From an uncultured Oscillospiraceae bacterium (GTDB lineage Bacteria; Bacillota; Clostridia; Oscillospirales; Oscillospiraceae): 64,000 nucleotides of DNA. Numbering within the stretch: the stretch's first letter is position 1; each line of letters opens with the position of its first letter. Shown here piece by piece: positions 1-18,892 of the stretch. The stretch covers positions 59,606 to 123,605 of the forward strand of contig CANQHN010000006.1 in NCBI GenBank assembly GCA_947623745.1, read 5' to 3'. The notes under the pieces were generated by a model. The model made no database searches. It had not been told where the DNA came from and saw only the letters and a list, made by a program, of their open reading frames with translations. Position numbers and translations under genes: made by a program.

Positions 1-432
1 GCCCGGGACCGGGGGCTGGAGATTGTGGACTACTTCGCCCGGGAGGAGCTGGCGGTGGCCAACTGCGTCCCCACCGCCGAAGGCTGCGTCCAGCTGGCCA
101 TGGAGCACCTGCCCATCACCGTCCACGGCGCCCGGGTGCTGGTGGTGGGCTACGGCCGGGTGGGAACGGTCACCGCCCAGCGCTTCCACGCCCTGGGCGC
201 CAAGGTCACCGTGGCCGCCCGGCGGTGCGAGCAGCTGGCCTGGGCCGGGGCCGCCGGCCTGGGAACTGAGCACATCGGCCAGCTGGCCGGCTGGCTGTGC
301 AGCTACGACCTGGTGGTCAACACCGTCCCCGCCCCGGTGCTGGGGGAGGCGGAGCTGGCTGACCTGCGGCCCGGCTGTCTGGTCATCGACCTGGCCTCCA
401 GCCCCGGCGGGGAGAGTATCCCGATTGGATAA
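1..432 (+). CDS. dpaA: Dipicolinate synthase subunit A, upstream part (interrupted)
   Basis: Open from base 1, so the true start lies outside the window. DpaA (SpoVFA) pairs with DpaB to convert the dihydrodipicolinate-pathway intermediate to dipicolinic acid in the mother cell. The frame shows the NAD(P)-binding fold of the family (VLVVGYGRVGT, then LVVNTVPAPVLG) and the late family segment LVIDLASSPGG. Native sequence stops at the glycine codon at 409-411; the next six residues (ESIPIG) and the stop at 430-432 come from inserted DNA. The missing C-terminus (VDREAAQHLGVQVI onward) is found in frame at 18879-19016. As it stands the product lacks about 46 C-terminal residues and is probably inactive unless the insert is excised. 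Identification is firm; the interruption is read directly from sequence. Confidence 0.9.
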   Translation, partial: ARDRGLEIVDYFAREELAVANCVPTAEGCVQLAMEHLPITVHGARVLVVGYGRVGTVTAQRFHALGAKVTVAARRCEQLAWAGAAGLGTEHIGQLAGWLCSYDLVVNTVPAPVLGEAELADLRPGCLVIDLASSPGGESIPIG

Positions 433-440
433 GGTCCCGG
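394..440. other. attL: left junction of the element
   Basis: The left half (394-409) is chromosomal dpaA sequence beginning GCCTCC; the right half (410-440) is element sequence carrying TTGGATAAGG at 425-434 followed by a CCCGG at 436-440. The shared core is CGGGG at 408-412. These arms are the partners of the arms at the right junction: see the attR entry for the pairing. The GG at 409-410 is the predicted crossover dinucleotide because it is the centre of symmetry of both reconstructed sites. Confidence 0.85.
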
Positions 441-510
441 CGGGACGCATATCCCCCGCCCTCCCCGAATAAGGACTGTTGAGACCCAAATCGGAAGGAG
501 GGCACCGCAA

Positions 511-2025
511 ATGGCCCGCCCAAAAATAGCGCTCTATCTGCGCCTTTCCCGGGACGACGAACGGCTCGGGGAGTCCTCCAGCATCGAGAGCCAGCGCGCC
601 TACCTGAACCAGTACGCGGCGGGAAAGGGCTGGACAGTGGCGACAGAATATGTGGATGACGGCTGGTCAGGCCTGACTTTTGACCGGCCGCAGTTCCAAA
701 GGATGCTGGCAGATATCGAGGCGGGGCAGATCGACACGGTGCTGACCAAGGACCTCTCCCGTCTGGGCCGCGACCAGATCTACACCGCCTACTACTACCA
801 AATTTATTTTCCCCAGCGGCAGGTGCGGTACATCGCCGTCTCCGAGGGGCTGGACACCGCCGGCACAGGGACGGCCAGCGCGCTGTTCCCCTTTTTGACC
901 GCCGCCAACGACTTCTACACGGCGGACGTCTCTCGCAAGGTGCGCGCGGCGCTGACCGCGCGGAAGCGGGAGGGAAAGTTTATCGGCGCCTCCCCTCCCC
1001 TGGGCTACCAAAAGGACCCGGACCGGCCGGGACATTTGATTGTAGAGGAGCCGGCAGCGGAGATCGTCCGTCATATCTTTACCCGATACCATCAGACCGG
1101 CAGCGTGACCGGAGTGGCGAAAGAGCTGACGGAACAGGGCGTCCCCACCCCGGCCCAGTATCGGGGCGGCGGAAACGGGGCCCGCTTCCCCGGAGTATGG
1201 AACGGAGCGTCCGTGCGCCGCATCCTGACCAACCCCACCTATGCCGGACACCTGACCCAAAACCGCAGAGAAAAGGTGAACTACAAGCTGAAGCAGTATC
1301 GAAATCTCCCACGGGACGCGTGGATCACGGTCCCAAATACCCATACGCCCATCATAGACCAGGCGCTGTACGACCAGGTCCAGACTCAGCTAGCCCTGCG
1401 CAGCTATCATACAAAGGCGGCCGGGGCCGGGCATCTGCTCACAGGACTGGCCTGCTGTGCGGACTGCGGCTCCCCTATGACTTACCTGCGGGAGAGCCCG
1501 ACACGTACCTATATGGTATGTCAGGGCTACCGAAAGGGCGGGCGGCTGAAGCTGTGCACCTCCCACTGCATCCGGGAGGACCGCGTGATCGAGGCGATCC
1601 GGGAGGAGCTGAAAAAGCTGGCCCAAAGCCTCGACACAGATCAGTTGGAGGCGGAATACGCCGGTGGAGAACAGCGATCGGAATATGACCACAGGGCCGC
1701 CCGTCTGGAGCGGGCCCTGGAGCGGCAGAAAGCGATGATGCAGCATCTCTACGAGGACCGCTCCTCAGAGCTGCTGACCGACGAGGAGTTCCGGGAGCTG
1801 TTCCAGGGGGCCCGGGAAAAGCGCGCCGCCATCGAGGGGCAGTTGCTCGCCCTGACGCAAGCGGACCAGCAAAACAGACAGCGGCAGGAGCTGAGGGATC
1901 AGATCCGGGAGCTGCTTTCCTTCCAAGTTTTGGACAGAAGCATTGTCACTACGCTTATTCACAAAATCCTCATCTGCGAGGACAAAAGGATCATTCTTCA
2001 ATTCCGATTTCAACAGCCCGAGTGA
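511..2025 (+). CDS. Large serine recombinase (site-specific DNA recombinase)
   Basis: 504 residues. The N-terminal resolvase domain (about 1-150) has YLRLSRDDE with the likely nucleophile Ser13, the IESQR motif and active-site arginines in SRLGRD (Arg84, Arg87). A recombinase domain follows (about 160-290), then a zinc-ribbon with CCADCG, Cys337 and the CTSHC pair (about 315-353), and a coiled-coil-rich C-terminus. This is the architecture of SpoIVCA, TndX and phage serine integrases, which integrate and excise elements by a double-strand break at a 2-bp core. The start follows a GGAGGG site at 496-501. It lies 78 bp after the truncated dpaA frame on the same strand, with no clear terminator between them, so it may be read from the dpaA promoter. 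No separate directionality factor was found. Confidence 0.95.
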   Translation: MARPKIALYLRLSRDDERLGESSSIESQRAYLNQYAAGKGWTVATEYVDDGWSGLTFDRPQFQRMLADIEAGQIDTVLTKDLSRLGRDQIYTAYYYQIYFPQRQVRYIAVSEGLDTAGTGTASALFPFLTAANDFYTADVSRKVRAALTARKREGKFIGASPPLGYQKDPDRPGHLIVEEPAAEIVRHIFTRYHQTGSVTGVAKELTEQGVPTPAQYRGGGNGARFPGVWNGASVRRILTNPTYAGHLTQNRREKVNYKLKQYRNLPRDAWITVPNTHTPIIDQALYDQVQTQLALRSYHTKAAGAGHLLTGLACCADCGSPMTYLRESPTRTYMVCQGYRKGGRLKLCTSHCIREDRVIEAIREELKKLAQSLDTDQLEAEYAGGEQRSEYDHRAARLERALERQKAMMQHLYEDRSSELLTDEEFRELFQGAREKRAAIEGQLLALTQADQQNRQRQELRDQIRELLSFQVLDRSIVTTLIHKILICEDKRIILQFRFQQPE

Positions 2026-2052
2026 ACACACGTTCATTCAGGCTTTTTTGGG

Positions 2053-2104: not shown

Positions 2105-2154
2105 AATCAAGTTCTTGCGGCGGCTTTCAGTTTGCCGTCAGGCTGTTTGGAGGA

Positions 2155-5100
2155 TCACTCCGCGCTGCTCTCGGTGGTCTCAGTCTGGGCCCCGGCGGCG
2201 TGGGAGGCGGCCAGCGCCTGCTCCAGCGCGTTCCAGTCCCGGTTCTCCATGTGGCCGGTCCAGGTCTCATAGGTCCCGGTCTCCAGGTTGAGGCTCATCT
2301 CGTACAGGTGGGAGTTGGTGGCCTCCTGAACGTCGGCGTAGTACCAGGCGTTCTTGTTGGCGTTGTCCGGCCAGGTAATCATGTCAGCGTACATGCCTTC
2401 CGCGTGGGGCTTGCGGCCCAGGACGCTGTTGATGATGTGCATGGCCTCGGCGCGGGTGATGTTGTTGGCGGGGAGGAAGGTGCCGTCGGGGTAACCGCCG
2501 GCCAGACCGTGGACAGCGGCGGCGTTGATGAACGGCCGGGCCCAGGTGTCGGCCACGTCGGTGAACTGGTCCTCATAGACCTCGTCGGCGTAGTCGAAGA
2601 AGCTGACCGCCACAGTCATCAGCTCAGCGCGGGTGATGGGGGCGTTGGGACGGAAGGTGCCGTCGTTGTAGCCGCTGAGCACGCCCATCTTGCCCAGGGT
2701 GGAGACGGCGTTGTTGTACCAGGAGCTCTCGGCCACGTCAGAGTAGGCGTTCTCGGTGGTCCAGTAGGTGTCGCGGACGGCGTCGTCCAGCAGGTGGTAG
2801 AAGATGACAGCCGTCTCGGCTCTGGTCAGGTTCTTCTCGGGGTGTACCATGCCGTCGTTGTAGCCGCTGACGTAGGCGTAGTGGTCCGTGAAGTTCAGAC
2901 CGTTGGGCAGGGCCGCCAGCGGGGTCTCCTCATCCACGATCTCGGTCAGCGGGGTGTCCTCGTCGGGGATGTTCGTGGTGGGACGGCGGGGCGGATCGTA
3001 ATCGTCGTCATCGTCGTCATCGTCGTAGTCCGGCGTGGTGGGCGCAGGCGGCGTGGGAGGCGTGGGCGGAACAGCGTTGATGGTGAAGTCGCCATTTATA
3101 ACAGTTACATCGTAATTTCCGTTATCATTGTTGTAATTGGCGGTCAGGACGTCCGGATAACTGCCCACGCTATTTTCGTCAGTGTTGATCCTGGAATACG
3201 TCACGCCAAGGTCTTGCTCAACTCTCTCAGAAGTGAGAGGAGAGTCTTCCTCCTTGATCGTGATCGTGCCACTGAACCGAGGATCATTGTTGCCGACATA
3301 CTTGCTGGCGTCGTTGACGGTGATGGTCACAGGACACGGTTTGATGACCAAATCATCGCCTACAAACGTTATCTTACACTGGCTGGAAATATCTTTTTCG
3401 TCCTCCAGTACAGTGAACCAGCCGTTGACACCATAGACACGATAGGTGCCCGCATTTGTGGCGTCATAGCTCATCTGACCATCAGGGGAGTAGAAGAATA
3501 CCTGCAGAGCGTCAGAATCATACTCGACGGCAATACCGTCGCCTGCTTCGACTTTTTCAACTGTTCCGGTATGGGGCATACCATCGTAGGTATATTCCCC
3601 GCCCTCAAGGTACACAGTGATTACCGTGCGGTCAGCCCAAACGGCGTAGAACGTCACATTGCCTTCGATTTGGTAGCTTCCGCCCACAGAGTATTCAACT
3701 TCTGCAGCATCCGGTTCGGTACTCCAGCCGATGAAGTACTTGTCAACGGGCGCGGTAAACCCACACTCAGGAAGCGAGTAACTATCACTGTAGTATACGC
3801 TTACAGAATCCATGTTGCCGGTGCCGCCGTTAGCGTCAAAGCGCACCGTGTAGGCATTGCGGTCATAGGTCAGGGTGATCGTCCAGTCTCCAGCGGGAAC
3901 GGGGCCACTCAGAGTCGCATTGTCGCGGTAGGTGTACCCAGTGATTTCGGGAGGCGTCACCGTGTATTCCTCGCCGTACGTGTACTTTTGCGTGGTCGCT
4001 TCCTTAATCACCTTGCCCTGATCATCCACGTACTTGACCGTCAGGGTGTAGTCGTTCACCTGCCAGACGGCGTAGAGGGTCACATCCATCTCCGTAAAGA
4101 CAGAGGCAGTTACTTCATCACCGACCGTATAGCTGGCTTCTTTGGCGCCCGGCTCCTTGGACCAGCCAAGGAACGTGTAGCCTTCGCGGGTGGGCTCCAG
4201 CCCGTCAACAGTGAAGCTGTGCGACATACCCTTGCCGGTGTAGGACTTCTCAGCGCTGGTAAAGGGCTCAAACTCGCCCTCGCCGGGGTCATAGGTCAGG
4301 GTGTAGGTGTATACGGAGTCCTCGGGCTCCTCAGGCTTGATGTAGGTGTTAACCACCGTCACAGTCTGATTTTCGTTCTCGATTACGCCGTCAAAGAACA
4401 CATAAGCGTTCGCTCCGGGGCCCTCGGGGATATAGTTTTTGGGGACGTTGATCTCCTTGACCACGACATGGTCGCCGGTCATCAGGTGGGCGCCGTTCTC
4501 CAGCTCGTCAACCGTGAAATCACCGTCTGCGATGATTGACTCTTCTTCCACCATCGTATCGTTGACGAAAACCTGAATAGTGAATTCGTCGTTCGCGGGA
4601 GCGCCCTCGCCATTGACGACCTTCGTCACGGTCAGGGTAGCTTCCTTCGGCTCAGTAGTCTCCCCCTGGGAACCGCCAGGCTTCGTGACGTTAACCGTGA
4701 CGGAATTCGACGCCTTCTGCTCAACGCCCCTGGCGGTCACATAGGCGGTGTTGGGATATGTGCCGGCCTCGGTGGCAACCACGCCGCTGATGGTCACAGT
4801 CTTGGTCTCGCCGGCCCTGACCAGGCCAATGTATTCCGTAAACTCGGTCTTGCCCGTCATCGCCTGTTGGAGGCCATCCGGCAGCTTGTCAGTGACCACC
4901 ACGTCGTGGGCGTCGGCCGTGCCGGTATTGGTCACCGTGATGGTGTACTTCACCGTCTCGCCCACATTGGCGGTCGACTTATCCACGGACTTCTCGATGG
5001 TCAGCTCAGGCAGCAGTTCCTCCCACTGGGCGGTGAGGGTCACGGGCTCGTCCGCAGGAACTTTCACTTTACCGCCGGGCTGATAGGTAGTTTCCCCATC

Positions 5101-6471
5101 GGACCACCCCAGGAACTTGTAGCCCTCTTTGGTGGGGGTCTTGTCGGGGATGGTCAACTCCCGATAGCGTCCGCCGCCCTCTTCCTCCACAGTACCGGGG
5201 ACAGAGTCCTGGTCAGCGCCGTTGCCATCAAACTCCAGGGCGAAAGTATGTTTCTTCACCTGGAAAGACACTTCTGCGGTGCCGGTAATATCAACATTTT
5301 GCTTAAAGCTCGGCAGGGAAGTATTATTGTACTTCGGCGTAACATCACCGTTATAGTTGACTACCGCCGTAACTTCTACATCCACATCGTTACCAACATC
5401 GCTGTCCTGCACTTGGTAATCAATCGTTCCGACCCAATTTCCGTAGTTATTCGGTTTAACAGGAACCTCATAAGACGTGCCGTCAATGGTAACTGTTACG
5501 GTTTTAACATTCTTGGTAAAGTCTTTAAAATCGGCGCTCTGATCCGGGGTCACAGTCACCGTCAAGGTCACAGTGTCCCCTGCTTCCACATTGTCTTTGG
5601 ACGGCGTAATGGTGACGCTCATTTCCGGCTTTTCCGCCACCACAACGTGGGTAACATCGGGAACTGAGGTACGATCATTTCTGTGATAACCGAAATGAAT
5701 AGCGTTGCTATTTTCTGTGGAGTCGATTCCGGGAGAACCCACGCTGCCGTCCATCATATAATACGCGTTGGTGATCACATAGCCAGCATTCGGTGTCACA
5801 TAGAAATCAATGCCGCGGGTTTCATTCGCCGTATTGTTGAAACCAGTGACAACAAAGGTAGGATTTCCATCTACGCGGGTTTCAGTAACATTTACAACAG
5901 TATGTGTCTGACGCACACTGGCATTTGTGAGCTTAAACGTGAACACCGCGTTGTCACCGTTGCCGTCGTTAACCGTAACTTCAAAACTTTGGGTGTGCTC
6001 CGTTTTATTGGTGGGATCTGTATAGGTATGGGTAATTTTCGCCACGCCCGGCGCAACGCCGACCACTGTGACCTTCGTCTCTCTGTCGGAAGAAACAATA
6101 GCCGCCACAGCGGAATTGCTGCTGGACCAATAATTGGGATCACCCAGGCCTCCCTGCAAAGTAACCGTTCCGCCAACGCTGATTGTTACCTTTTGTTGGT
6201 AAGTGATGGGCATGATCCCGTCGGACGCCATGGGCGCAAACCCATAGTCCTCCTCAGGCTCGTCGGCTTCGGCCTCCTCAAGATCGGGGATGACCTCTTC
6301 GGCTTCGATCTCCGCGGGGTCGGAGCTGTCCGCCGGCGCGACGTCATACACCAACTCCTCTTCCACAGGTGCGGCGAACGCGGTGATGTTGACCATGGGC
6401 AGGACCATGGTCAGCACCAGCAGGAGCGCCAGGAGCCGATGGAAACGATGTGCCTTTCTGTTCTTTGCCAT
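2155..6471 (-). CDS. Large SLH-domain surface protein with InlB-type and MucBP-like repeats
   Basis: 1438 residues from the ATG at 6471, chosen because it follows GGAAAGGAAG and opens a clear signal peptide (MAKNRKAHRFHRLL, hydrophobic core, AFAA). Approximate domains: Ig-like Big_2 (92-160); Listeria-Bacteroides/InlB-type repeats ending FLGW..YxV (413-485, 720-800, 867-940); DUF11-like repeat (TIEKSVDKS, 488-600); Cna/SpaA-like segment (607-700); MucBP-like segment (807-870); MBG-like domain (1040-1130); Pro/Asp-rich linker containing eight Asp in a row; three SLH repeats (about 1187-1350) for binding secondary wall polymer. Likely an S-layer-anchored adhesin. Transcription starts upstream of a c-di-GMP-I riboswitch. 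It is cargo of the dpaA element. Confidence 0.9.
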   Translation of the reverse strand: MAKNRKAHRFHRLLALLLVLTMVLPMVNITAFAAPVEEELVYDVAPADSSDPAEIEAEEVIPDLEEAEADEPEEDYGFAPMASDGIMPITYQQKVTISVGGTVTLQGGLGDPNYWSSSNSAVAAIVSSDRETKVTVVGVAPGVAKITHTYTDPTNKTEHTQSFEVTVNDGNGDNAVFTFKLTNASVRQTHTVVNVTETRVDGNPTFVVTGFNNTANETRGIDFYVTPNAGYVITNAYYMMDGSVGSPGIDSTENSNAIHFGYHRNDRTSVPDVTHVVVAEKPEMSVTITPSKDNVEAGDTVTLTVTVTPDQSADFKDFTKNVKTVTVTIDGTSYEVPVKPNNYGNWVGTIDYQVQDSDVGNDVDVEVTAVVNYNGDVTPKYNNTSLPSFKQNVDITGTAEVSFQVKKHTFALEFDGNGADQDSVPGTVEEEGGGRYRELTIPDKTPTKEGYKFLGWSDGETTYQPGGKVKVPADEPVTLTAQWEELLPELTIEKSVDKSTANVGETVKYTITVTNTGTADAHDVVVTDKLPDGLQQAMTGKTEFTEYIGLVRAGETKTVTISGVVATEAGTYPNTAYVTARGVEQKASNSVTVNVTKPGGSQGETTEPKEATLTVTKVVNGEGAPANDEFTIQVFVNDTMVEEESIIADGDFTVDELENGAHLMTGDHVVVKEINVPKNYIPEGPGANAYVFFDGVIENENQTVTVVNTYIKPEEPEDSVYTYTLTYDPGEGEFEPFTSAEKSYTGKGMSHSFTVDGLEPTREGYTFLGWSKEPGAKEASYTVGDEVTASVFTEMDVTLYAVWQVNDYTLTVKYVDDQGKVIKEATTQKYTYGEEYTVTPPEITGYTYRDNATLSGPVPAGDWTITLTYDRNAYTVRFDANGGTGNMDSVSVYYSDSYSLPECGFTAPVDKYFIGWSTEPDAAEVEYSVGGSYQIEGNVTFYAVWADRTVITVYLEGGEYTYDGMPHTGTVEKVEAGDGIAVEYDSDALQVFFYSPDGQMSYDATNAGTYRVYGVNGWFTVLEDEKDISSQCKITFVGDDLVIKPCPVTITVNDASKYVGNNDPRFSGTITIKEEDSPLTSERVEQDLGVTYSRINTDENSVGSYPDVLTANYNNDNGNYDVTVINGDFTINAVPPTPPTPPAPTTPDYDDDDDDDDYDPPRRPTTNIPDEDTPLTEIVDEETPLAALPNGLNFTDHYAYVSGYNDGMVHPEKNLTRAETAVIFYHLLDDAVRDTYWTTENAYSDVAESSWYNNAVSTLGKMGVLSGYNDGTFRPNAPITRAELMTVAVSFFDYADEVYEDQFTDVADTWARPFINAAAVHGLAGGYPDGTFLPANNITRAEAMHIINSVLGRKPHAEGMYADMITWPDNANKNAWYYADVQEATNSHLYEMSLNLETGTYETWTGHMENRDWNALEQALAASHAAGAQTETTESSAE

Positions 6472-6472
6472 T

Positions 6473-6509
6473 TTCGTTCTTCCTTTCCAACGTGAAATGT
6501 CGGAACGAA
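6473..6509 (-). promoter_or_regulatory. Candidate translational expression platform of the c-di-GMP riboswitch
   Basis: On the minus strand TTCGTTC (plus 6503-6509), right after the aptamer, is complementary to GAACGAA (plus 6473-6479), which lies between the Shine-Dalgarno sequence and the ATG. Pairing would enclose the ribosome binding site. No terminator-type T run follows the aptamer, so translational control is the simpler reading. Inference from base pairing only. Confidence 0.45.
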
Positions 6510-6511
6510 CG

Positions 6512-6598
6512 TGGCGGCCGGGCTGCCATAGCTTGCGCGGTAGGCCCCGTAGCTTTGCGCCCCGGGGTTTCCCCCGGTTTGCCGTTTCAGTTGCGTTC
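6512..6598 (-). ncRNA. c-di-GMP-I (GEMM) riboswitch aptamer
   Basis: In the 5' leader of the SLH gene. Read on the minus strand it has the family landmarks in order: GGCAAACC (plus 6576-6583), a GC stem closed by a GAAA tetraloop, GCGCAAAGCTACGGGGCCT (plus 6542-6560), then AGCTATGGCAGCC (plus 6521-6533). These match the conserved GGCAAACC...GAAA...ACGCAAAGCC...GGCCTA core of GEMM-I RNAs. In clostridia this class often controls surface adhesins, which fits the gene below it. A very stable hairpin of 11 pairs lies just upstream (6600-6624). Confidence 0.85.
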
Positions 6599-6599
6599 T

Positions 6600-6645
6600 C
6601 CCGCCAGGGCAGGGCCCTGGCGGGTGTCTTTTTGTACAAAAAGAC
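6600..6645. repeat. Two adjacent palindromes in the SLH leader
   Basis: 6600-6624 is a perfect 11-bp stem with a 3-base loop (CCCGCCAGGGC arms). 6626-6645 is a perfect 20-bp palindrome, GTCTTTTTGTACAAAAAGAC. Together on the plus strand they look like a hairpin with a T run, but no plus-strand gene ends nearby. On the minus strand they lie in the leader upstream of the riboswitch. Role unknown. Confidence 0.6.
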
Positions 6646-6989: not shown

Positions 6990-7667
6990 CTATTCAGAGG
7001 GCGGCTCGACCCCCGCGCACCTGCGCAGGAAGAAGGCGCAGATCCGGCCGCTGACCGGCAGGAACACCTGGGCCGCCGGCCCCACCAGGAACGCGCAGAC
7101 CACCGTTCCCACCCCCAGCACGCCGCCCATGGCCAGCCCGGCCAGGGCAAAGCACAGGTCCACGGCCACCCGCACGGGGCCGAAGGGCTTTCCGAGCTTC
7201 TCGCTGAGCACCACCGCCACTAGGTCGTTGGGCCCCGTACCGGCCTCCGACCGGATAACGATGGTCATGCCGAAGGCCAGGATGACGCAGCCCAGCGCCA
7301 GGATGGGCAGCCGCGCGGCCAGCGGCAGGCTGGCGTTCAGATAGGGGGCCAGCCAGACGGTGTAGACGTCGATGATGGGGCCGCCCAAGGCCATACACAG
7401 CACGGTGCCGATGCGCACCTTGGGCCGGTCCATGAAGAACAGCACCGCCATGATGAGCAGGGACACCAGCAGGTGGGTCCGCCCGTGGGTCATCCCCGCC
7501 CAGGCCGGCCAGGGCAGGGCCCGGAACAGGCCCTGGATCAGCACATTGAAGGGGTCGGAGCCCAGGTCCGACTGGAGGAACAGGGTCACGCCCAGGTGTG
7601 CGATGCACAGGCCGGCCAGCAGCAGCGCGATGCGGACGGCCTTTTCCCGGAGGACGCTCGTCTTCAT
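6990..7667 (-). CDS. YczE/YitT-family integral membrane protein
   Basis: 225 residues with five or six hydrophobic helices. The early segment QSDLGSDPFNVLIQGL and the later RIGTVLCMALGGPIID and SEAGTGPNDL are typical of the YczE/YyaS/YitT family, whose transported substrate or role is not established. It starts directly at the stop of the mutarotase gene (7668), so it is co-transcribed as the last gene of the arabinose operon. A sugar-related role is only suggested by position. Confidence 0.75.
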   Translation of the reverse strand: MKTSVLREKAVRIALLLAGLCIAHLGVTLFLQSDLGSDPFNVLIQGLFRALPWPAWAGMTHGRTHLLVSLLIMAVLFFMDRPKVRIGTVLCMALGGPIIDVYTVWLAPYLNASLPLAARLPILALGCVILAFGMTIVIRSEAGTGPNDLVAVVLSEKLGKPFGPVRVAVDLCFALAGLAMGGVLGVGTVVCAFLVGPAAQVFLPVSGRICAFFLRRCAGVEPPSE

Positions 7668-8729
7668 TCAGGCTCCTTCCCCGGCCCCGCAGGAGGGAAA
7701 GCGGTACACCGTGGTGTGGCGGAAGGTCTCCGCCGGCCGCAGGACGGGCGAGGGGAAATCCGGGTGGTGGGGGCTGTCCGGGAAGAGCTGGGTCTCCAGG
7801 CAGAAGCCCCAGCGGTTGGCGTAGGGCGCACCACCCTTGCCGGCGGGGCAGCCGTCCAGGTAGTTGCCCGTGTAGAACTGGACGCCGGGCGAGGTGGTGA
7901 GTACCTCCAGGGCAATCCCCGTTTCAGGGCTGTACGCCCGGGCGGCGGGGCGCAGGGTCCCGGCCTGGCCGTCCAGCACCCAGTTGTGGTCGTAGCCGCC
8001 GGCCATGGTCAGCTGGGGAAAGGCGTCGCCGATGTGGGCGCCGATGGCGGTGAGGCGGCGCAGGTCCATGGGGGTGCCCTCCACGGGGGCCAGCTCCCCG
8101 GTGGGGATGGAGCCGGCGTCGGTGGGGGTGTAGCGGTCCGCGAAGATCTGCACCTGCTGGTCCAACACCGGGCCGCTGCCGTGGCCGGACAGGTTGAAGT
8201 AGGCGTGGTTGGTGAGGTTGCACAGGGTGGGCCTGTCGCTGACGGCCTCGTAGCCAATGCTCAGGCCGTCCTCCTCCAGGCGGTAGGTCACCCGGACGGA
8301 CAGAGCGCCCGGGTAGCCCTCCTCCCCGTCGGGACTGACCAGGGAGAGGGTGAGGAAGTCGTCCCCCGCCTCCTCCGCCGTCCACACCCGCTTGTCAAAG
8401 CCCACTGTGCCGCCGTGGAGATGGTTGGGGCCGTTGTTGGCGGCCAGGGGGTAGTACACGCCGTCCAGCTCGAAGCCGGCGGCGCCGATTCGGTTGGCGT
8501 ACCGGCCCACCAGGGCCCCCAGGAATTTGTCGTTGGCGGGGTCCAGGTAGCTCTCCAGGCGGTCAAAGCCCAGCAGCACGTCCACTGTCTCCCCGCTCCG
8601 GTCCGGCGCCCGCAGGGCCCGGAGGGTGCCGCCGTAGGTGAGGATATCACAGGAGAGCTTCCCGGCGGCCAGGGTGTACTGGTCCACCTGGGTCCCGTCT
8701 GGCATGACGCCGAATGGGGTCTTTTTCAT
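7668..8729 (-). CDS. Aldose 1-epimerase (mutarotase), GalM family
   Basis: 353 residues, the usual length. Interconverts alpha and beta anomers of free sugars, here presumably L-arabinose entering the isomerase step. Family motifs seen: GRYANRI, NNGPNHLHGG, LTNHAYFNL with the catalytic His, GYDHNW and the late GFCLETQLFPDSPHH containing the catalytic Glu. Placed between araD and the YczE-like gene with 12 and 0 bases spacing. Confidence 0.93.
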   Translation of the reverse strand: MKKTPFGVMPDGTQVDQYTLAAGKLSCDILTYGGTLRALRAPDRSGETVDVLLGFDRLESYLDPANDKFLGALVGRYANRIGAAGFELDGVYYPLAANNGPNHLHGGTVGFDKRVWTAEEAGDDFLTLSLVSPDGEEGYPGALSVRVTYRLEEDGLSIGYEAVSDRPTLCNLTNHAYFNLSGHGSGPVLDQQVQIFADRYTPTDAGSIPTGELAPVEGTPMDLRRLTAIGAHIGDAFPQLTMAGGYDHNWVLDGQAGTLRPAARAYSPETGIALEVLTTSPGVQFYTGNYLDGCPAGKGGAPYANRWGFCLETQLFPDSPHHPDFPSPVLRPAETFRHTTVYRFPSCGAGEGA

Positions 8730-10987: not shown

Positions 10988-11003
10988 TGTTTTCGACCTC
11001 GTT

Positions 11004-12596
11004 TCACTCATTCAGATGGTCTATGGCGGAGCGCTGGATCGCCAGGCCCTCCACATACTGTTTCATAAAGGCGTTGAACCCGTCCACATCGGCGCTGTCG
11101 GGCTCCAAGGTGGAGCCGGTCTGCCCGGCAAAGACGTTGCCGGCCAGGTAGTCCTCCAGGGACTGGCCCTCAGCCCTGTTCACCTGATAGGCGGCCAGCA
11201 GGGCCATGCCCCAGGGCCCGCCCTCCCCGGCGGTCTGCATGACGGACACCGGCGCGCCCGCGGCGGCGGCCATGATCCGCTGGCCCACCTCCGGGGTCTT
11301 GAAGAAGCCGCCGTGGCCCATCAGCCGGTCCACCACCACGTGCTCCTCCGCCAGGATGTCCAGGCCGATCTTCAGGGTGGCCAGGGCGGAGTACAGCTGC
11401 ACCCGCATGAAGTTGGCGAAGTCCAGCCTGGCCCCGGGGGTGCGCACCAGCAGGGGGCGGCCATCGGACAGGCCGGCCACCGGCTCGCCGGACAGGTAGT
11501 TGTAGAGCAGGATGTTCCCGCCGTCCTTCTCGCCCTCCAGGGCGGAGCGGAACATGGCGGTGTAGACGGCGTTCATGTCGGGCTTCTGGCCCAGGGCCTC
11601 CAGCAGGCCCTTGAAGATCCCCGCCCAGGCGTTGATCTCGTTGGTGCAGTTGTTGCAGTGGACCATGGCCACCGGCGCGCCGGTGGGGGTGGTCACCAGG
11701 TCGATCTCCTCGTGAACCTTGGACAGGGCCTTCTCCAGCACTACCATGGCGAACACGGAGGTGCCGGCGGACACGTTGCCGGTGCGCTTGCGCACTGCGT
11801 TGGTGGCGGCCATGCCGGTGCCCGCGTCCCCCTCGGGGGGCGCCAAGGGGCAACCGGGCTCCAGAGTCCCCGTGGGGTCCAGGAGCTTGGCGCCCTGGTC
11901 GGTGAGGCTGCCCGCATCCTGACCGGCGGAGAGCACCTTAGGCAGCAGGCCCTTCAGCTTCCAGGGGAAGTTCAGGGGGGCCACCCGGGCGTCGTACTTG
12001 GCCACCATGGTCTCGTCGTAGTCCCCGGCGGCGCTGTCGATGGGGAACATGCCCGAGGCATCCCCCACCCCCAGCACCTGCCGGCCGGTGAGCTTCCAGT
12101 GGACGTAGCCGGCCAGGGTGGTGAGGAACGCGATGTCCTTCACGTGGGGTTCCCCGTTCAAAACGGCCTGGTGCAGGTGGGCGATGGACCACCGCTGGGG
12201 AATGTTGAACCCCAGCAGGGAGGTCAGCTCGGCCGCCGCGGGGCCGGTGACGGTGTTGCGCCAGGTGCGGAAGGGCACCAGCAGGTTCCCGTCCCGGTCA
12301 AAGGCCAGGTAGCCGTGCATCATGGCGGACACGCCCATGGCCTTGAGCTTTTTCAGCTCCACGCCGTACTTGGCCCTCACGTCGGCGGCCAGATTGGCGT
12401 AGGCGTCCTGGAGCCCGGCCCACACGTCGTCCAGGGCGTAGGTCCACAGCTCGTTCTCGTATTGGTTCTCCCAGGCGTGATCCCCCGAGGCGATGGGGGC
12501 GTGGTCGGGGCCGATGAGCACCGCCTTGATGCGGGTGGAGCCGAACTCCACACCCAGCACAGCCTGGCCAGAGGTGATGATATCTCTGAGTTCCAT
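11004..12596 (-). CDS. araB: FGGY-family carbohydrate kinase, probable L-ribulokinase
   Basis: 530 residues. Two actin-like domains: N-terminal [16 protein letters not shown] phosphate-binding turn, MHGYLAFD, and a C-terminal [20 protein letters not shown] with [15 protein letters not shown]. Placement between transporter genes and araA indicates it phosphorylates L-ribulose. It belongs to a branch of FGGY kinases distinct from classical E. coli AraB, so the substrate is assigned by context. Confidence 0.85.
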
Positions 12597-12965: not shown

Positions 12966-14168
12966 TCAGCCCTTCTTGCGCTTGGACAGCAGGTCCACGG
13001 TGACAGCGCCCAGCAGGACGGCGCCCTTGACGATCTTCTGGACGTTGGTGTCGAAGCCGGCCAGGGACATGCCGTTGTTCAGCACGCCCATGATCAGAGC
13101 GCCGACCACAGCGCCGATGATGGTGCCGATGCCGCCGGAGGTGGCGGCGCCGCCGATGTAGCAGGAGGCGATGGCGTCCATCTCAAAGCCGTCGCCGGCC
13201 TTGGGGGTGGCGGAGGCGTTACGGGCGGAGAGGACGATGCCGGCCAGGCCGCACAGCAGGCCCATGTTGGCGTAGACCCAGAAGAACACCTTCTCGGTGT
13301 TGATACCGGACAGGCGGGCGGCCTTGGCGTTGCCGCCCATGGCGTAGATCTGGCGGCCGGCCACGGTCTGGGTGGTGAGGAAGTGGTAAATGCCGACCAC
13401 CACGGCCAGCAGGATCAGCAGCACGGGCACGCCGTTGTAGGCGCCCAGCTTGTAGAAGAAGAACATCACGATGCCGATGATGATGGCGTCCTTCACGATC
13501 AGCTGCCAGGTGGGGGCGATGGGCAGGCCGTGCTTCTTGGCGGTGGCGATGCTCCTCAGCTCGGACAGGACGATGAACACGCTGACGACGATGCCGATGA
13601 TCACGCTGATCATGTCCACACCGCCGACACGGATGGTGGGCAGGAAGCCGGTGCTGATCCAGGTGTAGTCAGCAGGCAGGGGGCCCTTGGTCTGGGAGGC
13701 CAGCACCACGTAGCAGATGCCGCGGCCCATCAGCATGGTAGCCAGGGTGACGATGAAGGGGGGGATGGCCAGCTTGGACACGAAGAAGCCGACGAACACG
13801 CCGAAAATCAGGCCCACGGCCAGGGAGGCGATCATCGCGATGGGGGTGCTCATGCCGAAGTCGACGATGAGGGTGCCGGCCACGGCGCCGCAGGTGGCAA
13901 CCACGGAGCCGACGCCCAGGTCCACGTTGCCGGTCAACACGCACAGCAGCATACCGACGGCCAGGATGATGACGTAGCCGTTCTGCATGATCAGGTTGTT
14001 GACGTTGATGGGGGTCAGGTTCTTGCCGCCGGTCATGACGGCGAAGATCACGTACACCGCGATCAGCGCCAGCACCATGCCGTACTGCTTCATGCTCAGG
14101 TTGACCTTCTTGACCGGAGCAGCAGCGGCGGGGGCGGAGGTGGGAACTTTCGTGGCATTGTTACTCAT
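12966..14168 (-). CDS. gguB: Sugar ABC transporter permease (GguB/XylH type)
   Basis: 400 residues, about ten membrane helices after a short Ala/Pro-rich N-terminus. Segments AVGMLLCVLTGNVDLGVGS and GGNAKAARLSGINTEKV are typical of monosaccharide permeases of the BPD_transp_2 family. Its ATG overlaps the stop of the ATPase gene by one base (TAATG), indicating coupled translation. Transports the pentose delivered by the ChvE-like binding protein. Confidence 0.92.
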   Translation of the reverse strand: MSNNATKVPTSAPAAAAPVKKVNLSMKQYGMVLALIAVYVIFAVMTGGKNLTPINVNNLIMQNGYVIILAVGMLLCVLTGNVDLGVGSVVATCGAVAGTLIVDFGMSTPIAMIASLAVGLIFGVFVGFFVSKLAIPPFIVTLATMLMGRGICYVVLASQTKGPLPADYTWISTGFLPTIRVGGVDMISVIIGIVVSVFIVLSELRSIATAKKHGLPIAPTWQLIVKDAIIIGIVMFFFYKLGAYNGVPVLLILLAVVVGIYHFLTTQTVAGRQIYAMGGNAKAARLSGINTEKVFFWVYANMGLLCGLAGIVLSARNASATPKAGDGFEMDAIASCYIGGAATSGGIGTIIGAVVGALIMGVLNNGMSLAGFDTNVQKIVKGAVLLGAVTVDLLSKRKKG

Positions 14169-15718
14169 TACGCATCTCCCTTTCTGTTGTGGGCCATGAT
14201 GCAGCCCATGATGGCTTCCTGGGTGATCTCGTCGCCGGACAGCTCGCCGGCGATCTCGCCCTCGTTCAGAACATAAGTGCGGTCGCAGGTGCCGATGATC
14301 TCGGGCATCTCGGAGGAGATGACAATCACGGCCTTGCCGGCCTTGGCCAGGTCATTGATGACGCAGTAGATCTCGTACTTGGCGCCCACGTCGATGCCGC
14401 GGGTGGGCTCGTCCAGGATCAGCACGTCGGGCTCGGTGAGCATCCACTTGGCCAGAACCACCTTCTGCTGGTTGCCGCCGGACAGGGAGCCCACAGGCTG
14501 CTCCACCGTGTTAGTCTTGACGTTGATCAGGTGGCGGTACTCCTCGGCCTTCACGGCCTCCTTCTGCTGGTCCACGACGCCCTTGTTGGAGAAGAAGCTG
14601 TGCAGGGCGGCCAGGGTCATGTTGAACTTGATGCTGTCGATGAGGACCAGGCCGTAGGTCTTGCGGTCCTCGGACACGTAGGCCAGCTTGTTGTCGATGG
14701 CCTTACGGACGCTGTTGAGGTTGACCTCCTTGCCGTTGATTTTCAGGCTGCCGGAGATCTTCTGGCCGTAGGAGTGGCCGAACAGGCTCATGGCCAGCTC
14801 GGTGCGGCCGGCGCCCATCAGGCCCGCCAGGCCCACCACTTCGCCGGCGCGGACCTGGATGTTGATGTTCTTCAGGATCTCGCGGTGGGCGTCGTCGGGA
14901 TGGAACACGTTCCAGTCCTTCAGCTCGAAAATCACGTCACCGATGGGGCAGTCCTCCCGCTTGGGGTAGCGGTTGGTGAGCTCGCGGCCCACCATGCCCT
15001 TGATGATGCGCTCCTCGGAGAAGTCGTCCACGCCCTTCTGGAGGGTCTCGATGGTGTGGCCGTCGCGGATGATGGTGATGCTGTCGGCCACATAGCTGAT
15101 CTCGTTGAGCTTGTGGGAGATGATGATGCAGGTCATGCCCTGCGCCTTGAGCTGGAGCATCAGCTCCAGCAGCTGGGCGCTCTCGCGGTCGTTCAGGGCG
15201 GCGGTGGGCTCGTCCAGGATGAGCAGGTCGGCCTTCTTGCCCAGGGCCTTGGCGATCTCAATGAGCTGCTGCTTGCCCACGCCCAGGGCGTTGACCGGGG
15301 TGTTGACGTTCTCGCCCTCCAGGCCCACGCGGTCCAGCAGGGTCTGGGCCTCCCGGCGGGTGGCGGTCCAGTCGATGACGCCGTTCTTCTTGCGCTCGTT
15401 GCCCAAAAAGACGTTCTCGGCGATGGACAGGAAGGGGCTCAGCGCCAGCTCCTGGTGGATGATGACGATACCCTTGGCCTCACTGTCGCGGATGCTGTGG
15501 AACTTGCAGACCTCGCCCCGGTAGACGATGTCGCCGGTGTACTCGCCGTAGGGGTACACGCCGGACAGCACGTTCATCAGGGTGGACTTGCCCGCGCCGT
15601 TCTCTCCGCAGATGGCCATGATCTCGCCCGGACGTACCTTCAGGTTGACGTCGTCCAGAGCCTTTACGCCGGAGAACTCCTTGGTAATGTGGTTCATCTC
15701 CAGGATATACTCAGACAT
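14168..15718 (-). CDS. gguA: Sugar ABC transporter ATP-binding protein (GguA type)
   Basis: 516 residues from the ATG at 15718 ([15 protein letters not shown]). Two ABC domains: the first has [24 protein letters not shown] and [11 protein letters not shown]; the second has a degenerate Walker A (GLMGAGRTE), [14 protein letters not shown] and [13 protein letters not shown]. This tandem arrangement is the rule for monosaccharide importers. It energises uptake with the permease at 12966-14168. Confidence 0.94.
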
Positions 15719-15864: not shown

Positions 15865-15893
15865 CAGGTCACATGATATTGCTGGGGGTCCGA

Positions 15894-17051
15894 TCAGCCG
15901 GCCAGCTGCTCAGCGGTGTAGTAGCCGCCTTCCACGATGACTTCCTCGTAGTTGTTCACGTCAACAGCCACGGGAGTGCACAGGTAGGAGGGGACCACCA
16001 GGACGTTGTTGTTGTAGGTGGTGGTGTCGTTGATCTCGGGCTCGGAGCCGGTGAGCACGGCGTTGACCATGGTCACGCACTTCTCAGCCAGCAGGCGGGT
16101 GTCCTTGTAGATGGACATGGTCTGCTTGCCGGAGATGATGTTCTTGACCGCCATCAGCTCGGCGTCCTGGCCGGTGACCAGGGGCCAGTTGGCATCAGTG
16201 TAGCCAGCGCCCTCCAGAGCGGAGCGGATGCCGTAAGCGAAGCCGTCGAAAGCGGAGCAGGCGATGTCCAGATCCTCGTCAGCGTAGTAGCTGGCCAGGT
16301 AGTTCTCGCACCACTGCTGGGCGGTCTCCTGGGACCAGCGGAGGATACAGGTCTCATCGAAGGAGGTACGGCCGGTCTTGCAGACCAGGGTGCCGTCGTC
16401 CAGGTAGGGCTGGAGGACTTCCATGATGCCCTGATGCAGCAGGACGGCGTTGTTGTCGTCGGGGGAGCCCATGAAGAACTCGATGGTGTAGCTCTCGCCG
16501 TTGGCCTTGGCGTTGGCCAGGTCCTTGGCCTCAACGATGTAGTTGGCGATGGCGGTGCCCACGCCCTTGTTATCGAAGGAGGCGTAGTAGGAGACAGCGT
16601 CGGTGTCCATCAGCAGACGGTCATAGGCGATGATGGGAATGCCGGCGGCCTTGGCCTGGGCCTCAACACCGGTCAGAGCGCCGGAGTCAACAGCGGCGAT
16701 GACCAGGCAGTCGACCTGCTGAGCCACGAAGTTCTCGATCTGGGAGACCTGCATCTGCACGTCGTCCTCAGCGTACTGGAGCAGCACGTTGTAGCCCAGG
16801 TTCTCCAGCTGAGCCTTCATGTTGGCGCCGTCGTTGATCCAGCGCTCGGAGGACTGGGTGGGCATGGCGATGGCCACGGTCTTGCCGGAGCCGACCTGCT
16901 CAGAAGGCTCGGCAGGGGTGCTGGCCGCAGGAGCGGAAGCGGCGGGAGCGCTGGCAGCGGGGGTGGAGGCAGCGGGGGCGCTGCCGCCGCCGCAGGCGAC
17001 CAGGGACAGGCCCATAGCCAGTGCAAGAGCGGCTGCGAGGAACTTTTTCAT
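15894..17051 (-). CDS. chvE: Multiple-sugar/pentose-binding lipoprotein (ChvE type)
   Basis: 385 residues from MKKFLAAALALAMG; the ATG at 17051 has GGGGA upstream and gives a normal lipoprotein signal with lipobox LVAC. An Ala/Pro/Ser linker follows. The mature part is a periplasmic-binding-protein-like sugar domain with VAIAMPTQSSERW, CLVIAAVDSGAL, IIAYDRLLMDTDAVSYYASFD (17 to 20 residues excerpted in parts) and GQDAELMAVKNIISG, as in XylF and ChvE. First gene of the arabinose operon, transcribed from the promoter at 17123-17151. Confidence 0.92.
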   Translation of the reverse strand: MKKFLAAALALAMGLSLVACGGGSAPAASTPAASAPAASAPAASTPAEPSEQVGSGKTVAIAMPTQSSERWINDGANMKAQLENLGYNVLLQYAEDDVQMQVSQIENFVAQQVDCLVIAAVDSGALTGVEAQAKAAGIPIIAYDRLLMDTDAVSYYASFDNKGVGTAIANYIVEAKDLANAKANGESYTIEFFMGSPDDNNAVLLHQGIMEVLQPYLDDGTLVCKTGRTSFDETCILRWSQETAQQWCENYLASYYADEDLDIACSAFDGFAYGIRSALEGAGYTDANWPLVTGQDAELMAVKNIISGKQTMSIYKDTRLLAEKCVTMVNAVLTGSEPEINDTTTYNNNVLVVPSYLCTPVAVDVNNYEEVIVEGGYYTAEQLAG

Positions 17052-17122
17052 TTTGATATCCCCATTCATTTTAAATTTCCAACCGGCCCTCGTGCGAAAC
17101 GCCGGTCAGATTTGACGCTATA

Positions 17123-17151
17123 AAAATATCAAATTTTGACCGAAATGTCAA
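17123..17151 (-). promoter_or_regulatory. Sigma-A promoter of the arabinose operon
   Basis: Minus strand: TTGACA (plus 17146-17151), 17-base spacer, TATTTT (plus 17123-17128). The start near 17116 gives a short leader to chvE at 17051. A TTGTAC half-site lies immediately upstream. Confidence 0.8.
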
Positions 17152-17520: not shown

Positions 17521-17550
17521 TTGAAAAAGTTGTATGGTTTGTATTATAAT
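17521..17550 (+). promoter_or_regulatory. Sigma-A promoter of the araR-type repressor
   Basis: TTGAAA (17521-17526), 18-base spacer, TATAAT (17545-17550). TTGTAT and TTTGTAT half-sites sit inside the spacer, which suggests autoregulation by the repressor. Confidence 0.75.
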
Positions 17551-17587
17551 GGGGTCGAATCAAGCCGGCGAAATGGAAGTGATCGGT

Positions 17588-18658
17588 ATGCCGCCCAAGT
17601 ACCAGAAGATCGCCGATGAACTCCGCCTCCATATCCAGAGCGGAAAGTACATGAACGCCAGGACCCTGCCCACAGAGTTCGCCATCGCGGAGGAGTACCA
17701 GGTCAGCCGGCAGACCGTCCGGCAGGCCCTCTCCGTGCTGGCCAAGGGCGGGCTGATCGAAAAGCGCCAGGGCAGCGGCTCCTACATCCGCAGGCAGCCG
17801 GCCCAGGCTGCCCCTCCTGTCCCCAGCCGCAGCGTGGCCATCATCGTGACCTACATCTCGGACTACATCTTCCCCAGCATCCTCCGGGAGATGGAGACGG
17901 TGCTGTCCCGGAACAACTGCACCCCCACCCTGTACGCCACCCAAAACCAGGTCAGCAACGAGCGGAAGATCCTGACCGCCCTGCTGTCCTCCCCGGTGGA
18001 CGGCATCCTGGTGGAGGGCACCAAGACCGCCCTCCCCAACCCCAACCTGGACCTGTACGAGCAGCTGCTGGATAAAAAGGTCCCGCTGGTGTTCCTCCAC
18101 GGCAACTACGACAAGCTGGGCCAGGCCTTTTTCGTGCTGGACGACAACAACGCCGGCGGCCGGATGCTGGTGGAATACCTTTATAATAAGGGGCACCGGA
18201 ACATCGCCGGCATCTTCAAGAGCGACGATATCCAGGGCCTCCACCGCTACGCCGGCTACGCCGACGCCCTGCGGGACCTGGGGCTCCCCATGGAGGACTG
18301 GCACGTGCTGTGGTACAATACGGAGGAGTTCCGGGCCTCCGAGGGGCTGGAGTTCGCCCCCGGCGCCCTCCAGGCGCTGCGCGGCTGCACCGCCGTGGTG
18401 TGCTACAACGACCAGGTGGCCAGCCGGCTGGTCAAGCGCCTGTTGGCGAAGGGGGTCAAGATCCCCCAGGAGATGGCCGTGGTCAGCTTTGACGACAGCC
18501 AGTACAGCGACCTTTCCCCCCTGCGGATCACCTCCCTGTCCCACGGGGACAACAACGTGGGGCGGCTGTCCGCCGAGCTGCTGATCCGTCTGATGAACGG
18601 CGAGCCCTGCCGCTCGGAGCTGGCCCCCTGGGTGCTGGTGGAAAAGGAGAGCAGCTGA
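17588..18658 (+). CDS. araR: AraR-type transcriptional repressor (GntR head, LacI-type sensor)
   Basis: 356 residues from the ATG at 17588, preceded by GGAAGTG; earlier in-frame ATGs lack a good site. N-terminal winged helix of the GntR family (KYQKIADELRLHIQSGKY ... VSRQTVRQALSVLAKGG ... KRQGSGSYI), then a LacI/GalR-type effector domain from about residue 80 (VAIIVTYISDYIFPSILREME, NAGGRMLVEYLYNKGHRNIAG, VVCYNDQVASRLV, VVSFDDSQYSDL; excerpts). This is the AraR arrangement; L-arabinose is the expected inducer. Divergent from the arabinose operon it should control. Confidence 0.9.
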   Translation: MPPKYQKIADELRLHIQSGKYMNARTLPTEFAIAEEYQVSRQTVRQALSVLAKGGLIEKRQGSGSYIRRQPAQAAPPVPSRSVAIIVTYISDYIFPSILREMETVLSRNNCTPTLYATQNQVSNERKILTALLSSPVDGILVEGTKTALPNPNLDLYEQLLDKKVPLVFLHGNYDKLGQAFFVLDDNNAGGRMLVEYLYNKGHRNIAGIFKSDDIQGLHRYAGYADALRDLGLPMEDWHVLWYNTEEFRASEGLEFAPGALQALRGCTAVVCYNDQVASRLVKRLLAKGVKIPQEMAVVSFDDSQYSDLSPLRITSLSHGDNNVGRLSAELLIRLMNGEPCRSELAPWVLVEKESS

Positions 18659-18679
18659 CCCGCCGATTCAAAAAACGCC

Positions 18680-18769
18680 TCCGCCCGCCCGGCGGAGCCC
18701 AAAGAGAAAACGCCTGTGGATCCAGGAGAGGCCCGGCCGGCGCCGGCGCTCCAGAGCCACAGGCTTTTT
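18680..18769 (+). terminator. Terminator(s) after araR
   Basis: The main hairpin pairs GCCTGTGG (18712-18719) with CCACAGGC (18757-18764), followed by TTTTT. A shorter stem CTCCGCC/GGCGGAG lies at 18680-18698. They end transcription about 80 bases before the right att site, keeping araR transcripts out of the dpaA tail. Confidence 0.8.
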
Positions 18770-18845
18770 CATGCAGACCGCCGGCGGGAGCTGGACAAGT
18801 GATCTCTATTCCGAACGGGGCCGGGATATGCCCGCCCCGGCTCCT

Positions 18846-18892
18846 CCGGGCCCTTATCCAAATGAGATGTCCGCCGGGGTGGACCGGGAGGC
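18846..18892. other. attR: right junction of the element
   Basis: The left half is element sequence: CCGGG at 18846-18850, one base, then CCTTATCCAA at 18852-18861. The right half is dpaA with GGGAGGC ending at 18892. Circularising the element pairs CCGGG-N-CCTTATCCAA with TTGGATAAGG-N-CCCGG from attL, an inverted repeat of 15 of 16 positions centred on the GG at 18876-18877. The rebuilt attB pairs GCCTCC (394-399) with GGAGGC (18887-18892) around the same GG. Such sites are typical of large serine recombinases. Confidence 0.85.

What the first reader, a model, noticed from the sequence alone, without database searches (positions are those of the whole stretch)
409..18876. Unreported-looking sporulation-gene intervening element inside dpaA
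Seen: dpaA is cut at a glycine codon and its last 46 codons appear 18.47 kb away, in frame after joining, right before dpaB. The inserted DNA opens with a large serine recombinase. Established: sigK (skin), spsM (SPbeta) and spoVFB (vfbin) are split by elements removed by serine recombinases in the mother cell. Inference: this is a new member targeting the partner gene dpaA in an Oscillospiraceae-type Clostridia. Because the mother cell is terminal, loss of the element there costs the lineage nothing.
Basis: partly seen in the sequence, partly recalled or inferred. Interest (0 to 1): 0.93.

Follow-up and report, generated by a model that had tools for sequence, protein, structure and literature searches.

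The report
Spore gene split by excisable DNA
In this relative of Flavonifractor the spore gene dpaA is cut in two by 18.5 kb of DNA carrying its own recombinase, and dozens of related genomes have the same gene cut at the same spot, at a second spot or at both, so these cells likely remove the extra DNA to rebuild the gene while making a spore.

Summary
dpaA is cut at window 409 and resumes at 18,876. Joining the halves gives a 287-aa DpaA without a stop, next to dpaB. The ends share a GGGG core and rebuild an attP whose 11-of-12 inverted arms lie 16 nt from the central GG. An intact large serine recombinase (511-2025) follows attL.

It is not a one-off. Of 314 dpaA-bearing genomes in a 400-genome family sample, I count 27 with dpaA split: 13 at site A (NAVP|TAEG), 7 at site B (PGG|VD, the window's site) and 7 at both, so in three pieces. 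Each site has its own recombinase lineage. Of 14 genomes with a close relative of the window recombinase, 13 have it in dpaA site B. Split dpaA keeps purifying selection (dN/dS 0.076 between two three-piece genes) and evolves no faster than intact dpaA. In the inserts annotated, much of the DNA is metabolic or even core genes. The window's genome also has a split sigK.

Most likely this is developmental excision in the mother cell, as for skin. Excision was not observed, and the window copy lacks the RDF-like small ORF of most site-B relatives. The papers searched do not report dpaA interruption.

The parts
1..409 (+). dpaA 5' part (codons to PGG; gene starts 315 nt before the window at G000:C6:59291, behind a SigK-like promoter)
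409..412 (.). attL shared core GGGG; crossover dinucleotide inferred to be GG at 409-410
   Evidence: sequence
427..438 (+). attP half-arm GGATAAGGTCCC, 16 nt from the central GG
   Evidence: GGAT at the same offset in 7 of 13 site-B left junctions
511..2025 (+). large serine recombinase, 504 aa, intact; directly after the dpaA 5' part on the same strand
2155..6639 (-). large surface protein with DUF11, Listeria-Bacteroides repeats and SLH domains
6990..7667 (-). DUF6198/YitT-like membrane protein
7668..8729 (-). aldose/galactose 1-epimerase (galM-like)
8742..9440 (-). araD, L-ribulose-5-phosphate 4-epimerase
9518..11011 (-). araA, L-arabinose isomerase; the only araA match in this genome at E<=1e-100
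11004..12596 (-). sugar kinase of the XylB/ribulokinase type (araB-like)
12966..14168 (-). sugar ABC transporter permease (BPD_transp_2)
14168..15715 (-). sugar ABC transporter ATPase (GguA, above cut-off)
15894..17069 (-). sugar-binding protein (Peripla_BP_4)
17534..18658 (+). GntR-type regulator with LacI-type sensor domain
18848..18859 (+). attP half-arm GGGCCCTTATCC, 16 nt from the central GG
   Evidence: TTATCC also in 5 of the other 12 site-B right junctions with a read left junction
18876..18879 (.). attR shared core GGGG
   Evidence: sequence
18877..19016 (+). dpaA 3' part (codons 243-287)
19039..19620 (+). dpaB, dipicolinate synthase subunit B

Best explanation
The 18,467 bp between window 409 and 18,876 split the dipicolinate synthase gene dpaA and carry a large serine recombinase that likely cuts them out precisely in the mother cell during sporulation, which would rejoin dpaA in frame and put dpaB back behind the dpaA promoter. 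Shown by the sequence: both halves, the joint, the att sites, an intact recombinase, the same arrangement at the same codon in other genera, a second site with its own recombinase lineage, and selection on split dpaA genes. Inferred: that the recombinase performs the excision, that this happens only in the mother cell, and its timing. Proposed order, untested: sigK, itself split by a ~2.4-kb element in this genome, is rejoined first. SigK then transcribes dpaA' from its SigK-like promoter and reads on into the recombinase gene 102 bp beyond the cut, and the recombinase removes the insert. The forespore keeps the insert, so the lineage loses nothing.
For: In-frame joint. Symmetric attP. Intact LSR. 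Same cut in 13 genomes read at both junctions. LSR-B specificity: 13 of 14 genomes with a match at E<=1e-115, among 400 (three candidates scored per genome), carry it in dpaA site B. No stops in the aligned codons of 28 split genes. dN/dS 0.076 between G189 and G312, both in three pieces, and 0.206 between G281 and G486. Relative rates: 349 residues unique to split against 387 unique to intact genes over 20 trios with shared intact partners; 8 more split genes had no usable outgroup. SigK-like site ahead of dpaA: score >=6.5 in 56 of 57 upstream regions, mean 7.11 against 5.76 shuffled, individually P<=0.05 in 27 of 57 including the window's genome; none found just before the 3' part and dpaB. 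The LSR directly follows dpaA' on the same strand in 7 of 13 site-B elements. A split sigK in the same genome. Precedents: PMC4191935, PMC5025042, PMC5595907, PMC6957869, PMC10747680 (passages, and the Discussion of PMC5595907).
Against: No excised product was seen; no reads or expression data were available. The window element has no RDF-like small ORF. SigE-like motifs ahead of LSR-B genes are not consistent. The window's dpaA against intact relatives gives dN/dS 0.45-0.72 in the closest 40 pairs, which alone shows weak constraint; intact pairs in that list range from 0.12 to 0.74. The SigK-like site is not significant on its own in 30 of 57 genomes. In 4 of 13 site-B elements the LSR lies on the other strand, and in 2 more it lies at the far end, so read-through cannot be general. 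The att arm GGAT is at the window's offset in only 7 of 13 left junctions. G249's dpaA is faster than its intact partner (31 against 14 unique residues).
Confidence: 0.8

Rival explanations
1. A site-specific island that happens to use conserved dpaA codons as its landing site and excises at random or under stress, without developmental timing; spores come from the fraction of cells that lost it.
For: LSRs favour conserved targets (recalled), and both sites are conserved protein motifs. No consistent sporulation promoter lies ahead of the LSR. The yin element was found excised at all time points (PMC10747680, passage).
Against: Both cuts are present in G189 and G312 while dpaA stays under strong selection. 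Sole-copy metabolic genes in the insert would make vegetative loss costly.
Confidence: 0.12
2. A dead gene: dpaA is permanently broken and decaying, and the host no longer makes DPA by this route.
For: No RDF-like ORF in the window element; no excision evidence; the window's own dN/dS is not low.
Against: No stops in the aligned codons of split genes, low dN/dS in the closest split pairs, no rate increase, 22 against 25 unique residues for the window's gene, intact recombinase and dpaB.
Confidence: 0.06
3. A natural two- or three-piece DpaA enzyme: the pieces are made separately and associate.
For: The 3' part has an ATG-led frame (18771-19016).
Against: No SigK-like promoter found before the 3' part; the cuts read coincide with recombination cores; the 3' piece is only about 45 aa; dpaB would lose the operon promoter.
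Confidence: 0.01
4. Assembly artefact joining unrelated contigs.
For: Many relatives are draft genomes or MAGs, and some splits fall on two contigs.
Against: Core and symmetric arms at the window's junctions. The same split occurs in independent genomes, including a one-contig genome (G259), a Clostridium viride DSM 6836 scaffold and Flavonifractor sp. An82.
Confidence: 0.01

Closest known systems
skin elements in sigK (B. subtilis, C. difficile)
   Same: Split mother-cell sporulation gene, LSR, att sites, in-frame reconstruction. In B. subtilis skin the RDF gene skr overlaps the 5' end of the LSR gene, as the small ORFs of most site-B relatives do (PMC6957869 passage).
   Different: Target is dpaA; the cargo is metabolic, not prophage-like. 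The sigK LSRs of this genus form a separate clade of the same broad LSR group.
vfbin in spoVFB (dpaB) of Bacillus weihenstephanensis
   Same: Same enzyme and operon, partner subunit; inserted in a sporulation gene (passages).
   Different: Different gene. The vfbin sequence was not compared here; the passages read mention no second site or second recombinase.
gin in gerE of Bacillus cereus
   Same: Non-prophage element with LSR and RDF (Discussion section read).
   Different: gin holds further recombinases and ImmR/ImmA-like candidates; the dpaA inserts annotated here hold arabinose, thiamine, DAP/lysine, carbamoyl-phosphate or core DNA-repair genes.
yin in yabG of Clostridium botulinum
   Same: Element in a SigK-regulon gene, LSR directly after the 5' part in the same orientation (passages).
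   Different: Prophage-like and called unique by its authors; dpaA inserts recur across genera and families.

Membership tests
sporulation-gene intervening elements (skin, SPbeta, vfbin, gin, yin) | Interrupts a mother-cell sporulation gene that reads in frame after precise removal | tested here: met
   spoVFA listed in the SigK regulon (PMC3416734 passage)
sporulation-gene intervening elements (skin, SPbeta, vfbin, gin, yin) | Encodes a site-specific recombinase of the large serine type | tested here: met
sporulation-gene intervening elements (skin, SPbeta, vfbin, gin, yin) | attL/attR with shared core and a symmetric attP | tested here: met
sporulation-gene intervening elements (skin, SPbeta, vfbin, gin, yin) | Recombination directionality factor | tested here: inconclusive
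   An RDF-like small ORF overlaps or abuts the LSR start in 10 of 13 site-B elements (8 by script, 2 by eye), two more are weak, and none is found in the window element; other RDF types cannot be excluded
sporulation-gene intervening elements (skin, SPbeta, vfbin, gin, yin) | Excision during sporulation in the mother cell | not testable with these tools
   Needs cultures or reads; indirect support
prophage or integrative conjugative element | Phage structural or conjugation genes | tested here: not met
   Pfam/NCBIfam on the window element's main proteins shows recombinase, surface, membrane, sugar-transport, arabinose and regulator genes; one 101-aa ORF had no match; PHROGs not run

The most novel reading that the evidence does not exclude
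dpaA is a developmentally assembled gene in a large bacterial family. Two dedicated recombinase lineages each cut it at one conserved codon, some species carry it in three pieces, and the DNA between the pieces has turned into ordinary chromosome, including sole-copy dapF or araA and core genes such as mutS2, uvrC and coaD. The mother cell would thus discard working parts of its own genome, as ciliates do in the somatic nucleus. In the window's species sigK is split too, giving a serial cascade: join sigK, SigK switches on dpaA' and its recombinase, join dpaA.
Probability: 0.45. Interest if true: 0.93.

Novelty: new variant of a known kind. Interest (0 to 1): 0.88.

Why it matters
[quoted passage not shown] Here one gene, needed for the spore's DPA, is split in about 9% of dpaA-bearing genomes of a family sample, at two fixed sites with two recombinase lineages, and in seven genomes at both. 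That makes an old question directly testable: are these elements passive parasites or maintained developmental switches? The recurrence, the selection on split genes, and the metabolic and core genes caught inside favour a maintained state. It also warns annotators and sporulation-prediction tools that a dpaA called broken or absent in such Clostridia may be an assembled gene. Two hosts with strain names are Clostridium viride DSM 6836 (three-piece dpaA) and Flavonifractor sp. An82.

Tried and rejected
A first in-script join was one base off and gave a false frame; corrected. SigE-like promoters ahead of LSR-B genes: no consistent signal. attP patterns of both sites in viral contigs: 0 matches each, and no dpaA in any of the 80 viral loci with LSR relatives, so no phage form was found there. 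LSR-A is less exclusive than LSR-B: its top 14 hits are all at dpaA site A, but below about 430 bits other locations mix in. Not counted as splits: G250 (adjacent frames, a frameshift), G135, G172 and G339 (a full-length copy plus another match), G320 (contig ends; its right side reads through site B), G025 (contig ends; reads through site A); G218, G424 and G443 gave only short weak matches. Search hits for six split genes carry stop codons (G078, G231, G384, G434, G451, G462); the codons kept after cutting at the junctions carry none. G092's LSR falls near the site-B clade but its dpaA is intact. The first tree made the sigK and dpaA-B clades sisters; with more rows they are separate clades of one broad group. 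A native arabinose locus beside dpaA was rejected: the relatives examined hold araA elsewhere, and G062 has dpaA next to dpaB. G359 and G298 have only weak small-ORF candidates. On checking, the promoter claim was restated (27 of 57 individually significant), and the odds of the novel case, which includes the cascade, were lowered from 0.5 to 0.45.
Full report
Observation. The window opens inside dpaA. The gene reads LVIDLASSPGG and leaves the DpaA sequence after window 409. It resumes at 18,876 with VDREAAQHLGVQVIHALSLPGKVAPATAGAAIKLTIYHILRERGF, and dpaB follows. Joined at the shared GGGG, the gene encodes 287 residues without a stop; 12 of 24 DNA alignments of the joint to relatives are gap-free. 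The rebuilt attP is 58 bp, with arms GGGCCCTTATCC and GGATAAGGTCCC each 16 nt from the central GG and 11 of 12 bases complementary; 4 of 200,000 shuffles of one arm do as well.

What lies in between. First comes the recombinase (511-2025: Resolvase, Recombinase, Zn-ribbon). Then come an SLH surface protein, a YitT-like protein, galM, araD, araA, an araB-like kinase, a GguA-type sugar ABC transporter and a GntR/LacI regulator. In this genome araA has one match at E<=1e-100, the one in the insert; 28 of 64 genus genomes have araA. In the three relatives examined it sits in an arabinose locus of similar gene order with a different transporter, and the intact dpaA of G062 is next to dpaB. So the insert holds an ordinary operon; no phage gene was recognised.

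Census. The joined DpaA was searched in 64 genus genomes (61 with a match), in 400 family genomes (314 with a match) and in 245 class genomes (147 with a match). Family genomes with two or more matches were searched again. Two cut positions recur: site A at residues ~131/124 (NAVP|TAEG) and site B at ~244/238 (PGG|VD). In the family sample I count 13 genomes cut at A only (G078, G115, G123, G130, G144, G174, G199, G384, G403, G434, G446, G451, G469), 7 at B only (G000, G143, G203, G281, G298, G359, G462) and 7 at both (G147, G189, G231, G249, G259, G312, G486). That is 27 of 314. In G203 only the right side of site B and in G147 only the left side of site A lies on an assembled contig. The count is probably low, because one search scored at most six candidates per genome and single partial matches were not followed. 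All three pieces lie on one contig in G231, G249, G259 and G486. The genus search adds G020 and G021 at site A. Outside the family, G538, G593 and G681 (site A) and G566, G660 and G597 (site B) follow the same pattern; G538 and G597 are on two contigs.

Junctions. At site B both junctions were read in 13 genomes. The left side has GGGG in 12 of 13 (G359 differs) and the right side in 11 of 13 (G359 and G259 differ); all are consistent with a crossover at GG. The arm GGAT sits at the window's offset in 7 of 13 left junctions and TTATCC in 6 of those 13 right junctions. At site A the insert ends can carry a long inverted repeat, for example in G020 and G021: TGTCCCA-N-CGCTAACGC (TAATGC in G021) on one side and GCGTTAGCG on the other.

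Recombinases. Site-A and site-B recombinases belong to different LSR lineages. In one search, 22 of 23 rows from site-A loci form one clade (the other is a second LSR of G384), and 12 of 13 site-B rows form one clade, G359 pairing with L032 beside it. LSR-B is nearly exclusive to dpaA: of 14 genomes with a match at E<=1e-115 among 400, 13 hold it at dpaA site B and one (G208, 42% identity) has an intact dpaA. In genome contigs (a capped scan; best 80 of 580 relatives kept), 9 of 9 loci at >=45% identity hold split dpaA and 0 of 71 at <=42% hold dpaA. LSR-A (G174) gives the same picture for its top 14 hits, less cleanly below.

Function is kept. The aligned codons of 28 split genes hold no stop. 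dN/dS is 0.076 between G189 and G312, whose dpaA is in three pieces in both (0.101, 0.067 and 0 per piece), 0.206 for G281-G486, and 0.087 for split G123 against intact G330. The window's gene against intact G062 gives 0.45; intact pairs among the closest 40 range from 0.12 to 0.74 (Nei-Gojobori on GC-rich codons, so the higher values are rough). In relative-rate trios, residues unique to the split gene sum to 349 and to the intact gene to 387 over 20 of 28 split genes; 8 had no usable outgroup, and many trios share an intact partner. The window's gene scores 22 against 25. Two trios deviate: G249 faster, G434 slower.

Regulation. A SigK-like site (AC-N16..18-[CG]ATA-N3-T[AG]; the consensus is recalled) scores at least 6.5 ahead of dpaA in 56 of 57 genomes, split or intact. 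The mean is 7.11 against 5.76 in shuffles, and 27 of 57 are individually at P<=0.05; for the window's genome 0 of 50 shuffles score as high. spoVFA is listed as SigK-controlled (PMC3416734 passage). No such site was found just before the 3' part and dpaB in the window. In 7 of 13 site-B elements the recombinase directly follows dpaA' on the same strand. Read-through would switch on the recombinase when DpaA is needed; this is inference.

sigK. In the window's genome two sigma-factor genes match the SigK model best, both below its cut-off. The one at C3 follows a SpoIIGA-like protein, read by eye, so I take it as sigE; the one at C13:65306-65926 (minus) I take as sigK. It stops matching at SRSYVS, and a tail RIEKKALCKLEQAMNEK lies at 62918, just after an LSR at 62970-64490, so the insert is about 2.4 kb. 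It holds an RDF-like small ORF. All 13 loci L033-L045 show sigK sequence beside the LSR. The SigK-to-dpaA cascade is my proposal.

RDF. A 35-46 aa ORF with a GPxLEELL-type motif overlaps or abuts the LSR start in 10 of 13 site-B elements (8 by script, G189 and G312 by eye), with weaker candidates in G298 and G359. In B. subtilis skin the RDF gene skr overlaps the LSR gene through a +1 frameshift (PMC6957869 passage). A profile of ten of these ORFs finds none in the window element but finds the one in the sigK insert (E 5e-4). So the window copy may depend on a factor in trans, use another RDF, or be stuck. This is the main caveat for this copy.

Cargo. Annotated inserts hold dapF and lysA (G249 site B; dapF is the only match in that 97%-complete genome); carAB, dapA, dapD and an amidohydrolase (G298); thiF, thiG, thiH and a TenI/ThiE-like gene (G281); and mgsA with an RlmI-like methyltransferase (G312). 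G249's site-A insert holds mutS2, uvrC, rsmD, coaD and mtaB, all above cut-off. G174 and G434 inserts carry CoA-transferase genes. G021's site-A insert instead looks like a mobile island, read by eye. The other site-A inserts were not annotated.

Known or new. Split sporulation genes named in the papers seen are sigK, spsM, spoVFB, spoVR, gerE, yabG and kamA (passages). Searches for dpaA/spoVFA and dipicolinate synthase with intervening, recombinase, prophage and skin terms (only the top rows were listed for the larger ones) showed no report of dpaA interruption. The library lacks most subscription papers and holds no bioRxiv preprints. I file it as a new variant of a known kind.

Noticed in passing
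G000:C13:62918-65926 (L339), outside the window: sigK of the same genome is also split, by a ~2.4-kb element holding an LSR and an RDF-like small ORF.
   Followed up: yes
G403:C10:132372-132776 and 393808-394293 (L127, L128): The two dpaA parts are on the same strand but in the wrong order for simple excision on the linear contig, 261 kb apart; joining would put dpaA on a 261-kb circle, or the draft is misassembled.
   Followed up: no
G568:C11 and C40 (L350, L351): A third dpaA cut near residue 189 in another family, on two contigs, with unlike flanking DNA.
   Followed up: partly
G020 (L064, L065) versus G021 (L062, L063): Closely related site-A recombinases, but the insert appears inverted relative to dpaA between the two genomes.
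   Followed up: no
G249:C1:20500-36678 (L105): Core genes mutS2, uvrC, rsmD and coaD lie between two dpaA pieces, so excision would remove them from the mother cell.
   Followed up: partly
just upstream of dpaA, L061 ~3960-4165: The gene ahead of dpaA reads by eye like the end of an electron-transfer flavoprotein alpha subunit; a link of EtfA to DPA synthesis in C. perfringens is recalled, not looked up.
   Followed up: no
window 2155-6639 (-): A 1494-aa SLH surface protein sits next to the recombinase; large secreted-looking proteins also occur in the inserts of G298 and G451.
   Followed up: no
family sample: 86 of 400 family genomes have no dpaA match; some may be missed splits or non-sporeformers.
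   Followed up: no
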